DNA from: Anadara kagoshimensis
Lineage: Eukaryota; Mollusca; Bivalvia; Arcoida; Arcidae
NCBI GenBank assembly: GCA_021292105.1
Contig: CM037871.1
Coordinates: 58,798,866-58,862,865 of the forward strand
Reading direction: 5' to 3'
DNA: 64,000 nt
Positions within the stretch are counted from its first letter, which is position 1. The number at the start of each line of letters is the position of its first letter. Both the position numbers and the translations under genes were made by a program. Positions 39,701 through 48,700 of this stretch are shown piece by piece. The notes under the pieces are model-generated. The model ran no database searches and was not told where the DNA came from. It saw only the letters and a list, made by a program, of their open reading frames with translations.

Positions 39701-42700
39701 TAGAAGATTAAAACTGCAAAAATTTCCTACTGATAATTTTCTTCTTATACAGTATATATTCAACATAATTATCACAGCATCTCACAGCAACAATCAACCA
39801 CCCACTAAATCTGAATATGTTATACTACAAGACAGACTTACTTGTGCCTCGTACTGGACAGAGTTTGTAGGCCTCACCAGTATTTCCCCATTCCATACCT
39901 AAATCACAGCAACAATCCACTACCAACTAAATCTGTACATGTTATACTGTAAGACAGACTTACTTGTGCCTCGTACTGGACAGAGTTTGCAGGCCTCACC
40001 AGCATCTCACCATCCCATACACATATCACAACAACAATCCACTACCCACTTAATCTGTACATGTTATTTTTATGGTAGTACTACAACATGGACTTACTTG
40101 TGCCTCGTACTGGACAGAGTTTGCAGGCCTCACCAGTATCTCCCCATCCCATACACATATCACAACAACAATCCACTACCCACTTAATCTGTACATGTTA
40201 TTTTTATGGTAGTACTACAACATGGACTTACTTGTGCCTCGTACTAGACTGAGTTTGCAGGCCTCACCAGCATCTCACCATCCCATACCCATATCACAGC
40301 AACAATCCACTACCCACTTAATCTGTACATGTTATTTTTATGGTAGTACTACAACATGGACTTACTTGTGCCTCGTACTAGACTGAGTTTGCAGGCCTCA
40401 CCAGCATCTCCCCATCCCATACACATATCACAACAACAATCCACTACCCACTTAATCTGTACATGTTATTTTTATGGTAGTACTACAACATGGACTTACT
40501 TGTGCCTCGTACTAGACTGAGTTTGCAGGCCTCACCAGCATCTCACCATCCCATACACATATCACAACAACAATCCACTACCCACTTAATCTGTACATGT
40601 TATTTTTTATGGTAGTACTACAACATGGACTTACTTGTGCCTCGTACTAGACGAGTTTGCAGGCCTCACCAGCATCTCACCATCCATACCATATCACAGC
40701 AACAATCCACCACCCACTAAATCTGTACATGTTATTTTTATGGTAGTACTACAACATGGACTTACTTGGCCTCGTACTGGACAGAGTTTGCAGGCCTCAC
40801 CAGCATCTCCCCATCCCATACCCATATCACAACAACAATCCACTACCACTAATTCTGTACATGTTATACTATAAGACAGACTTACTTGTGCTCGTACTGG
40901 ACAGAGTTTGCAGGCCTCACCAGTATCTCACCATCCCATACACATATCACAGCAACAATCCACTACCCACTTAATCTGTACATGTTTTTTTATGTAGTAC
41001 TACAACATGGACTTACTTGTGCCTCGTACTAGACTGAGTTTGCAGGCCTCACCAGCATCTCACCATCCCATACACATATCACAACAACAATCCACTGCCC
41101 ACATAATCTGTACATGTTATTTTTATGGTAGTACTACAACATGGACTTACTTGTGCCTCGTACTGGACAGAGTTTGCAGGCCTCACCAGTATCTCACCAT
41201 CCCATACACATATCACAACAACAATCCACTACCCACTTAATCTGTACATGTTATTTTTATGGTAGTACTACAACATGGACTTACTTGTGCCTCGTACTAG
41301 ACTGAGTTTGCAGGCCTCACCAGTATCTCCCCATCCCATACACATATCACAGCAACAATCCACCACCCATTTAATCTGTACATGTTATTTTTATGGTAGT
41401 ACTACAACATGGACTTACTTGTGCCTCGTACTGGACAGAGTTTGCAGGCCTCACCAGCATCTCACCATCCCTAGACATATCACAACAACAATCCACTACC
41501 CACTTAATCTGTACATGTTATTTTTATGGTAGTACTACAACATGGACTTACTTGTGCCTCGTACTAGACTGAGTTTGCAGGCCTCACCAGCATCTCACCA
41601 TCCCATACCCATATCACAGCAACAATCCACTACCCACTTAATCTGTACATGTTATTTTTATGGTAGTACTACAACATGGACTTACTTGTGCCTCATACTA
41701 GACTGAGTTTGCAGGCCTCACCAGTATCTCCCCATCCCATACACATATCACAACAACAATCCACTACCCACTTAATCTGTACATGTTATTTTTATGGTAG
41801 TACTACAACATGGACTTACTTGTGCCTCGTACTAGACTGAGTTTGCAGGCCTCACCAGCATCTCACCATCCCATACCCATATCACAGCAACAATCCACCA
41901 CCCACTTAATCTGTACATGTTATTTTTATGGTAGTACTACAACATGGACTTACTTGTGCCTCGTACTAGACTGAGTTTGCAGGCCTCACCAGCATCTCAC
42001 CATCCCATACCCATATCACAGCAACAATCCACTACCCACTTAATCTGTACATGTTATTTTTATGGTAGTACTACAACATGGACTTACTTGTGCCCGTACT
42101 AGACTGAGTTTGCAGGCCTCACCAGCATCTCACCATCCCATACACATATCACAACAACAATTCACCACCCACTTAATCTGTACATGTTATTTTTATGGTA
42201 GTACTACAACATGGACTTACTTGTGCCTCGTACTGGACATAGTTTGCAGGCCTCACCAGCATCTCACCATCCCATACACATATCACAACAACAATCCACC
42301 ACCCACTTAATCTGTACATGTTATTTTTATGGTAGTACTACAACATGGACTTACTTGTGCCTCGTACTGGACATAGTTTGCAGGCCTCACCAGCATCTCA
42401 CCATCCATACACTCACAACAACAATCCACCACCCACTTAATCTGTACATGTTATACTATAAGACAGACTTACTTGTGCCTCGTACTGGACATAGTTTGCA
42501 GGCCTCACCAGCATCTCACCATCCCATACACATATCACAACAACAATCCACTACCCACTTAATCTGTACATGTTATTTTTATGGTAGTACTACAACATGG
42601 ACTTACTTGTGCCTCGTACTAGACTGAGTTTGCAGGCCTCACCAGCATCTCCCCATCCCATACACATATCACAACAACAATCCACTACCCACTTAATCTG

Positions 42701-45700: not shown

Positions 45701-48700
45701 TCTCACCATCCCATACACATATCACAACAACAATCCACTACCCACTTAATCTGTACATGTTATTTTTATGGTAGTACTACAACATGGACTTACTTGTGCC
45801 TCGTACTGGACAGAGTTTGCAGGCCTCACCAGCATCTCACCATCCCATACCCATATCACAGCAACAATCCACCACCCACTAAATCTGTACATGTTATTTT
45901 TATGGTAGTACTACAACATGGACTTACTTGTGCCTCGTACTAGACTGAGTTTGCAGGCCTCACCAGCATCTCCCCATCCCATACACATATCACAACAACA
46001 ATCCACTACCCACTTAATCTGTACATGTTATTTTTATGGTAGTACTACAACATGGACTTACTTGTGCCTCGTACTGGACAGAGTTTGCAGGCCTCACCAG
46101 CATCTCACCATCCCATACACATATCACAACAACAATCCACTACCCACTTAATCTGTACATGTTATTTTATGGTAGTACTACAACATGGACTTACTTGTGC
46201 CTCGTACTAGACTGAGTTTGCAGGCCTCACCAGCATCTCACCATCCCATACACATATCACAACAACAATCCACTACCCACTTAATCTGTACATGTTATTT
46301 TTATGGTAGTACTACAACATGGACTTACTTGTGCCTCGTACTGGACAGAGTTTGCAGGCCTCACCAGTATCTCCCCATCCCATACACATATCACAACAAC
46401 AATCCACTACCCACTTAATCTGTACATGTTATTTTTATGGTAGTACTACAACATGGACTTACTTGTGCCTTGTACTGGACAGAGTTTGCAGGCCTCACCA
46501 GCATCTCCCATCCCATACACATATCACAACAACAATCCACCACCAACTAAATCTGTACATGTTATACTATAAGACAGACTTACTTGTGCCTCGTACTGGA
46601 CATAGTTTGCAGGCCTCACCAGCATCTCCCCACCCCATACCCATATCACAGCAACAATCCACTAAAGACAATCTAGCAGCCATTGGTTCTGTACATGTGC
46701 CTTGTACTATCCTGCTGTAGCAAAGTTTCTTCCTCACAACTGAAAGAAATAAAAGGAATTATAATACTGTATAAGGGAAACTTTAAACGGTACAAAACTT
46801 TAGCAATTTTGATCTTCCTAACTATTTCGCTGCAATAAATTTTTACGGTTCCATCTGTAGGGAAAGTGTACGAAGGGGGAAGCAAATTTTGCCAGAAAGA
46901 TATATTCACGGTATAAATGCCACCATGAAAACTGCTAATATTTCTTTACTGAGAATGTTTCTTCTTAGACAGTAACATTTTTATATCTAGAACAACATGC
47001 TAGCCAAACAATGGAAGCTGGAAGAGCTTTTGAATAGTGCACTATGAGCCCAGGTAAGCTAAAAAGAAATATAAAGTTTGATGAGATAGCATATTTTGAC
47101 TTATTTTGCATTTTTCCCCAAATTTTGTAATTTGGAAAAAATATTTATCATCAAATCTATCAGTGATCAAGCTGCTTGTTAATTTTTCAATTTATACTGC
47201 AAAACTAACTGACTACAATACATTGAAAGGGATCAACATAATTGACATGTTTGTATTGCTGTGAGTGCCCCAAACAATTAAATATATAAACTACTTTTAT
47301 TTAATTATTAAGAAGATAAATATTCTTCCCATCTTTTGCATCATTATTAATTTTTATTTAATGAAATATTAATGTTGATTAAGATGATAATTTTTAATAA
47401 TTCAAATTCATCACTTTTCTTTATAATCATTGCAAAAATAACAAAAGTACTAAAGTATCAAAAAGTTAAGTTTTTTATTTTTTGTCCATAAAACTGATGG
47501 TTTGCTTTCATGTGTTAAATAGGATGGTTGATTTTCATTCCATAACTGTAATATAAATCACAAAATTTACAAATTCTCTTTAATTTGTTAAAATTACAGT
47601 AAAATTTCTGTATACAGGTAATTTAAATAATTATACTTAAACTACATGTAATTTGTAATGTCATTACATAGTTTGTAATTTTGCAATTACATGTACATGT
47701 ATGTCATTAATATACATACCCCACACAGTACAACTTCTGGAGATATAATGATTGGTTGTGTTTAACATAATCACAAGGTAAGAAATCACACCTCCTCTTA
47801 TAAACAAATTACAAGGAACCAACAGTTAAAAAGATATATAAAATACTATACATAATTATTGGGATACGGGGAAACCTCATTTTTAAAATTTTAAAAAAAA
47901 AATCAACATCTTTTTTCTCTTCCACATCGTTGCGGTAGCTCAGTCAGTAGAGTGCTCGCTCCATAAGTGGAAGGTCGTGGGTTTGAACTTGACCAGGTCT
48001 GACCCAAGTTTGAAAGTGGGTAGTGACTGTTCTTTCGTCAAGCACTCAGTATTACGAAATGAAAGTAATGGTTCTTTCGGATGGGAACTTAAAATAAACA
48101 AGGTCCCCTGTCACAATGGGCTTGGAATGATAAAGAACCCAGCTGTATAAGTGCAATGCAAAGGCAAAACTTCTGCACCTTGGCTTATAGCTGGTGATAT
48201 CTCGATACAAGTGACTGGAATGTTAAACACCATTACTCAACTCAACTCTTTCCCTCCCACCTTTATCACCAACCAACCCAATGGACTGCACAAATTCAAA
48301 AGAAGTGCATATTTTGGTATGTAAAGGACCCTCCTCCAACATCTCTCCCTCCAACCCCCAACCCTGACCAACCACTAGACTGCAAAAATTAAAAAGAAAA
48401 GGGATTTTTTTTTATAAAACATCACTCAGACCCCCATGCAAACCAAACCCTGGACAGCAGAAAATCATACGAAATGCAATTTTTGTCAAATAAAGCTCTC
48501 GTCCTCCAACATCTCTCCCATCACCCCTCACCCTAACTAGCCCCTGCACTGCATAAATTTAAAAGAAATGTGATTTCATGTTACATAATTTTATTGTGCT
48601 TTTAAAAAAAGTAAACCCATCATTCTGATGTTAATTTAAAGAGACCCCCCACTGATACCAAATTAATGGTTATTTAATGCTTGTAATTTAAACCTTTAAA

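What the first reader, a model, noticed from the sequence alone, without database searches (positions are those of the whole stretch)
39775..46640. Second, independent half-exon/donor satellite from TB1 exon 7 (~134 bp x ~51)
Units contain the TB1 fragment VVDCCC...[17 protein letters not shown] and a consensus ACAA|GTAAGT donor. It has a different exon, domain, unit size and sequence from the 62-bp array, but the same architecture (exon 3' half + donor + a few intron bases, growing downstream from the native exon). Two such arrays in one gene make chance unlikely.
Basis: partly seen in the sequence, partly recalled or inferred. Interest (0 to 1): 0.88.

Follow-up and report, generated by a model that had tools for sequence, protein, structure and literature searches.

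The report
Exon-edge splice-donor satellite in fibrillin-like gene
A piece of a fibrillin-like gene containing the end of one exon and its splice signal has been copied about fifty times into the following intron, and similar exon-edge repeats turn up in several other genes of the same animal, so this looks like a recurring and mostly harmless kind of gene-derived satellite rather than new coding sequence.

Summary
A minus-strand fibrillin-like gene carries 51 tandem units (45 of 134-bp type, 6 of 122-bp type) at about 46583-39775. Each repeats the 3' part of the TB-domain exon (46739-46584), its donor CAA|GTAAGT and intron bases. All 52 donors, native included, are intact. A unit 33-mer occurs nowhere else in the 1.1-Gb genome. 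Units are not spare exons: 36 of 51 carry a stop, 7 lose a cysteine or the frame, and the consensus 134-bp unit has no acceptor of native quality. Donor columns are not significantly more conserved than others.

The array is not unique. The same gene holds two more donor-edge arrays (62 bp x67; 81 bp x72) and one acceptor-edge array (76 bp x4). Elsewhere, 7 of 9 donor-array loci inspected have a native coding exon upstream; three are identified (NOA1, RGS7, 7B2).

Most likely: tandem duplication across a donor, expanded by unequal exchange, tolerated because the native donor comes first. A donor minisatellite is known from human 6-16 (IFI6). New here are recurrence, size and clustering. Splicing use is untested.

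The parts
46584..46739 (-). native TB-domain exon (source of the array), acceptor TTTCTTTCAG|, donor CAA|GTAAGT
   Evidence: Pfam TB E 7.2e-11 with next exon
39775..46583 (-). donor-edge satellite: 51 units (134 bp, six of 122-bp type) of about 79 nt exon 3' part + donor + intron bases, plus a degenerate tail
   Evidence: TRF; unit parse; variant analysis
39277..39441 (-). next exon (end of TB domain + calcium-binding EGF), 400 nt below the last array donor
   Evidence: Pfam EGF_CA
11608..11730 (-). native calcium-binding EGF exon, source of the 62-bp donor array
   Evidence: Pfam
7518..11653 (-). 62-bp donor-edge array, 66.7 copies (46 nt exon + GTATGG..., 16 nt intron, read by eye)
671..51784 (-). 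stretch holding the exons of the same gene inside the window; 35 exons used in all, eight of them left of the window out to -26247

Best explanation
A tandem duplication joined a point in the 3' part of the exon to a point in the following intron at short homology (exon ...CTTTAG|TGGATTG, intron ...GATTTAG|; inferred by reading). The two-copy array then grew by unequal exchange, including a block duplication of about 17 units (the lag-17 identity is shown, the exchange is inferred). Every copy keeps a splice donor because the donor lies inside the unit. It is tolerated because the spliceosome meets the native acceptor-exon-donor first (exon definition, native donor nearest and transcribed first); the 51 downstream donors are then removed with the intron (inferred). 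Use of any later donor would read a stop (..GTSKSVL*) a few codons past the native one (shown from sequence), so such transcripts would be candidates for NMD. The same process would have made the 62-bp and 81-bp arrays of this gene and the donor arrays in other genes. No selected function is needed.
For: Exon-to-unit identity, and a locus-restricted 33-mer: 34 of 34 genome matches at this locus. 35 distinct of 52 rows and a lag-17 peak, 9 of 34 pairs identical, next best 4 of 43 at lag 8. Units decay as coding sequence: of 51, 36 with a stop, 7 with Cys lost or frameshift, 8 intact; changes by codon position 60/23/16 for positions 1/2/3 in the 44 of 51 ungapped units. Donor 9-mer has 0 changed cells in 50 units but 17 of 134 windows are as low; in the 62-bp array 4 changed cells in 66 units, 23 of 62 windows as low or lower. 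Consensus 134-bp unit: best acceptor score 4.59 against native 6.06 to 15.51. Same anatomy in other genes with identified native exon: NOA1 (PDB phmmer 5.8e-15), RGS7 (3.5e-10), 7B2 (Pfam 3e-11).
Against: All 52 donors are intact, which is also what selection on donors would give. Among the 4 arrays over 1 kb in this gene, 3 sit on donors (P 0.0004 for random seeds, post hoc), and the genome-wide match-level excess of donor triples (912 v 197, 790 v 213, 796 v 252) with none for an acceptor-like motif (122 v 110) suggests more than indifferent seeding: at least donor arrays are better tolerated or grow larger. In the 62-bp unit one AG scores 7.09, inside the range of native acceptors, so that array is less clearly free of acceptors.
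Confidence: 0.72

Rival explanations
1. The donor arrays are used: a field of U1 snRNP binding sites in a long intron that slows or tunes splicing, or shields the transcript from premature polyadenylation, kept by selection.
For: Intact donors in all 52 copies; donor triples over-represented at match level; intronic repeats can control splicing (TERT intron 6, PMC3948165, abstract only). The U1 and polyadenylation role is recalled, from no call.
Against: Donor columns not significantly more conserved than other columns; donors visibly decayed in other arrays (CAGGTTAGT, CAGATAAGT in L046, CAGGTTAGT in L051).
Confidence: 0.12
2. Units are alternative or multiplied mini-exons that vary the TB domain.
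For: 8 of 51 units keep the frame and all cysteines.
Against: 36 of 51 have stops; no acceptor of native quality in the consensus unit, and its best AG lies only about 43 nt past the donor before it; unit lengths 134 and 122 are not multiples of three.
Confidence: 0.03
3. Assembly artefact: copy number inflated or rearranged in a repeat.
For: Only one assembly was available; the 17-unit block repeat could be a mis-join.
Against: 35 distinct rows of 52, non-array flanks on a 62-Mb contig, and similar arrays at several independent loci. Exact copy number remains uncertain.
Confidence: 0.06
4. Duplication is driven at donors by a transcription-linked mechanism (R-loops on the G-rich sense strand, or stalled splicing), making donor edges a hotspot for satellite birth.
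For: Strong strand skew in both window arrays, GC skew -0.34 to -0.41 on the plus strand, so a G-rich sense strand; donor over acceptor-like excess at match level.
Against: The skew comes with the coding unit; acceptor-edge arrays also exist (-15248..-14938; L058); the locus-level excess is small (4 v 1 in the stretch compared).
Confidence: 0.07

Closest known systems
Human 6-16 (IFI6) minisatellite, Turri, Cuin and Porter 1995 (only the title seen, in reference lists; paper not held; that it is the 6-16 gene is recalled)
   Different: Here about 50 long units carrying part of a coding domain, several arrays in one gene and similar ones in other genes; use of the extra donors not shown.
Internal tandem repeats at exon-intron boundaries of human paralogs, De Grassi and Ciccarelli 2009, PMC2812944 (outline and passages)
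   Same: Tandem repeats across exon-intron boundaries; 162 alignments with repeats there, 27 intron modifications after manual inspection.
   Different: Those average 30-bp units x 4 with transcript changes; here the largest are 44-134 bp x 50-72, and reading past the native donor of the TB exon meets a stop.
Polyubiquitin UBC dual-specific splice sites, Duan et al. 2024, PMC10809524 (abstract and passages)
   Same: A tandem array in which each unit has a splice site.
   Different: UBC sites are AGGT at the borders of coding units and act both ways; here AA|GT in an intron with no acceptor-grade site in the consensus unit.
TERT intron 6 38-bp repeats, PMC3948165 (abstract)
   Same: Intronic tandem array.
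   Different: TERT repeats lie more than 1 kb from junctions and act by RNA pairing; no such role tested here.

Membership tests
Donor-providing minisatellite (6-16 type) | tandem array starting at an exon's donor, each unit with a donor | tested here: met
   52 of 52 donors intact
Donor-providing minisatellite (6-16 type) | several of the donors are used in transcripts | not testable with these tools
   no RNA data
Dual-specific splice-site array / recursive splicing | AG|GT site that also scores as an acceptor | tested here: not met
   134-bp array: site is CAA|GTAAGT; best AG in the consensus unit scores 4.59, native acceptors 6.06-15.51. In the 62-bp unit one AG scores 7.09, but it is two bases from, not at, the AG|GT donor
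Multiplied alternative exon | each unit with acceptor, open frame, donor | tested here: not met
   36 of 51 units with stops, no acceptor of native quality in the consensus unit
Dispersed satellite DNA | arrays of the same unit at many loci | tested here: not met
   exact 33-mer: 34 matches, all at this locus; diverged copies were not searched for
Functional U1-site array | donor constraint above the rest of the unit | tested here: inconclusive
   0 changes in donor of 50 units, but 17 of 134 windows equally low

The most novel reading that the evidence does not exclude
Exon-edge satellites are a genome-wide class in this animal with a donor bias: duplications across donors expand to tens of copies because the first-transcribed donor always wins, while duplications across acceptors put the native site last and are purged or stay short. 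The arrays would then be a natural readout of splice-site order rules, and some may have been recruited as U1-binding fields.
Probability: 0.3. Interest if true: 0.75.

Novelty: new variant of a known kind. Interest (0 to 1): 0.5.

Why it matters
If the donor bias and the tolerance rule hold, natural arrays of 50-70 near-identical copies of one donor test how the spliceosome chooses among equal donors. They also show a route by which coding exons seed satellites inside their own introns, lengthening genes and leaving decoy splice sites whose stops could be copied back into the exon by gene conversion (inference). Eight literature searches of the held library listed no report, as far as titles and abstract openings show, of a recurrent class of large donor-edge arrays; most subscription papers are not held.

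Tried and rejected
Rejected: dispersed satellite (exact 33-mer only here); spare or alternative exons; dual-specific or recursive sites for the 134-bp array; unusual RNA structure: two 134-bp units fold to -69.3 against -64.2 +/- 4.9 and three 62-bp units to -41.2 against -43.8 +/- 4.1, 60 mononucleotide shuffles each; a fibrillin-specific function, since similar arrays occur in other genes.

Weak spots. One search gave 3 edge arrays of 17 (P 0.11) because the TRF range of the 134-bp array starts just past its donor; redid it with 4 of 16 set by hand, the two 81-bp blocks merged. Arrays counted are TRF score 100 or more, period 12 or more, between the outermost exons used; the 145-bp array at -29188..-27189 and the ATTC repeat fell outside these limits. 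In one search the 81b block was only partly parsed (30 anchors); the donor motif was recounted (15 and 55 copies of TGTGGGTATGT). The exon at 4183 was one base short. Genome-wide counts are matches, not arrays, with one control motif each (the motif reversed): the places listed (about 100 of 912) fall in 4 loci, those listed for the reversed motif (about 100 of 197) in 16 loci, those listed (about 100 of 122) in 20 loci, counted by eye. In the stretch that one search's list covers, C1 plus C2 to 19 Mb, there are 4 donor loci against 1 reversed-motif locus: too few to be significant. The AAGGTAAGT replicate (796 v 252) is dominated by one array at C2:17.0 Mb; its four listed loci were not inspected. 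The MCT-like identity of the L051/L052 exon is recalled and found no support in Pfam or PDB; for these two paralogous loci the exon call rests on a 66-codon frame open from an ATG to the donor. At L053 the unit shares only the last few exon bases. L047 and L055 show no clear exon. The acceptor-like motif is less specific than the donor motif, so 1 of 8 against 7 of 9 is not a fair rate comparison.

Full report
What is there. The window lies across a minus-strand fibrillin-like gene in an unnamed animal genome of 1.115 Gb in 36 contigs. A regex for calcium-binding EGF exons gave 32 exons from 51784 to -26247 in window coordinates; with three more read by eye (46739-46584, 39441-39277 and one at 4183) I used 35. 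EGF_CA matches continue on the same strand to C15:58754539, so the gene may be longer still (which scored 150 of 2024 candidates). The exon at 46739-46584 joined to the next one matches the TB domain (PF00683, 7.2e-11) and EGF_CA (1.6e-7), and LTBP1 (4.5e-26) and fibrillin-1 (1.3e-17) chains in the PDB.

The array. After the native donor follow 51 copies, units 118-135 bp, each ending in CAA|GTAAGT. A unit holds about 79 nt of the exon's 3' end, the donor and intron bases. Two types exist: 45 units of 134-bp type and 6 of 122-bp type, the latter with the native intron start. The first and last copies are of the 122-bp type, which suggests interior expansion of the 134-bp type. Of 52 rows, native included, 35 are distinct; identity peaks at lag 17, where 9 of 34 pairs are identical, so a block of about 17 units was probably duplicated. 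Native exon and unit consensus differ at 5 of 79 positions.

It is not coding. Of 51 units 36 carry an in-frame stop in the exon part, 7 lose a cysteine or the frame, 8 remain intact; changes fall on codon positions 1/2/3 as 60/23/16 in the 44 of 51 units without indels. Reading on past the native donor gives ..GTSKSVL*. No AG in the consensus 134-bp unit scores like the gene's acceptors (best 4.59, native 6.06-15.51); in the 62-bp unit one AG does (7.09), at the low end. The donor 9-mer is unchanged in 50 of 50 units tested, but 17 of 134 windows of that width are as clean; in the 62-bp array the donor has 4 changed cells in 66 units and 23 of 62 windows do as well or better. So intact donors are what recent homogenised copies would show anyway, and selection on them is neither shown nor excluded.

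The gene has more. Besides the 62-bp array (7518-11653; 46 nt of exon 11730-11608 plus 16 nt intron), an 81-bp array of 16 + 56 copies at -3486..-4788 and -7313..-11829 carries 14 nt of exon -3371..-3499 plus its donor, and a 76-bp x4 array at -14938..-15248 carries the acceptor and 59 nt of exon -15190..-15315, with the full exon at its downstream end. Four of 16 arrays between the outermost exons thus sit on an exon edge; random seeds of the same periods give 1.1 on average, P 0.02; of the four arrays longer than 1 kb three sit on donors, P 0.0004. Both figures are post hoc, and a cruder count gave 3 of 17, P 0.11.

Other genes. Three CAGGTAAGT at gaps of 30-60 occur 912 times in the genome against 197 for the reversed motif, at gaps 53-83 790 against 213, three AAGGTAAGT at gaps 30-60 796 against 252, while single CAGGTAAGT are 13,923 against 10,032. 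An acceptor-like motif, TTTTTNCAGG, gives 122 against 110 for triples and 28,913 against 22,124 for singles. I inspected nine donor-array loci: the seven that appear in the capped lists (all on C1-C2), and two clusters visible in the capped list. Seven of nine have a native coding exon at the upstream end. Three are identified by homology: NOA1 (5.8e-15), RGS7 (3.5e-10), 7B2 (Pfam 3e-11). Two show acceptor, open frame and donor without a family hit (DTVEFY..YGFQ; KIMMQ..AFFQ). Two paralogous loci share a 66-codon frame open from an ATG, which I recall as transporter-like without support. Two (L047, L055) are unclear. Of eight acceptor-like array loci inspected, out of 20 listed, one (L058) has a clear native exon at its downstream end. 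So both kinds exist. The donor excess is strong per match but rests on few loci: in the stretch that one search's list covers, 4 donor loci against 1 reversed-motif locus.

Mechanism. Shown: origin from the native exon, tandem amplification, decay of coding frame, retention of donors, recurrence in other genes. Inferred: seeding at short homologies, growth by unequal exchange, and tolerance because the native donor is the first one met, both in transcription and in exon definition. For acceptor arrays the native site comes last, which would expose wrong joins; this would explain a donor bias but was not tested on RNA.

Known or new. A donor minisatellite (human 6-16, title only) and repeats at exon-intron boundaries of human paralogs are known. 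What eight searches did not list is a recurrent class of large exon-edge donor satellites across unrelated genes of one genome, with three in a single gene. I file it as a new variant of a known kind.

Noticed in passing
window -4789..-7312 (left of the window, C15): A 2.5-kb block splits the 81-bp donor array; by eye its ends are inverted repeats (GACCTCAGT.GTGA), so it looks like a DNA-transposon insertion.
   Followed up: partly
window -14938..-15248 (left of the window): 76-bp x4 array across the acceptor of a calcium-binding EGF exon: the mirror case of the donor arrays.
   Followed up: partly
62928-64967 (runs off the window): 93-bp x22 array, 98% matches; by eye the minus-strand unit is open over all 31 codons. 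Not studied.
   Followed up: no
L046 about 5150-6620: An insert with retroelement-like coding pieces (recalled resemblance, no search) splits the 7B2 donor array.
   Followed up: no
G000 C2:17005838-17013958: Very large 65-bp array with AAGGTAAGT in its units, about 90 of the listed matches.
   Followed up: no
24869-25425: ATTC microsatellite of about 136 copies inside the gene.
   Followed up: no
49106-49235: 43 bp x3, 100% matches, a recent triplication.
   Followed up: no
-29188..-27189, -17639..-16392, 76720-77928: By eye the same 145-bp unit at three places in and around the gene, so a dispersed satellite unlike the locus-restricted donor array.
   Followed up: no
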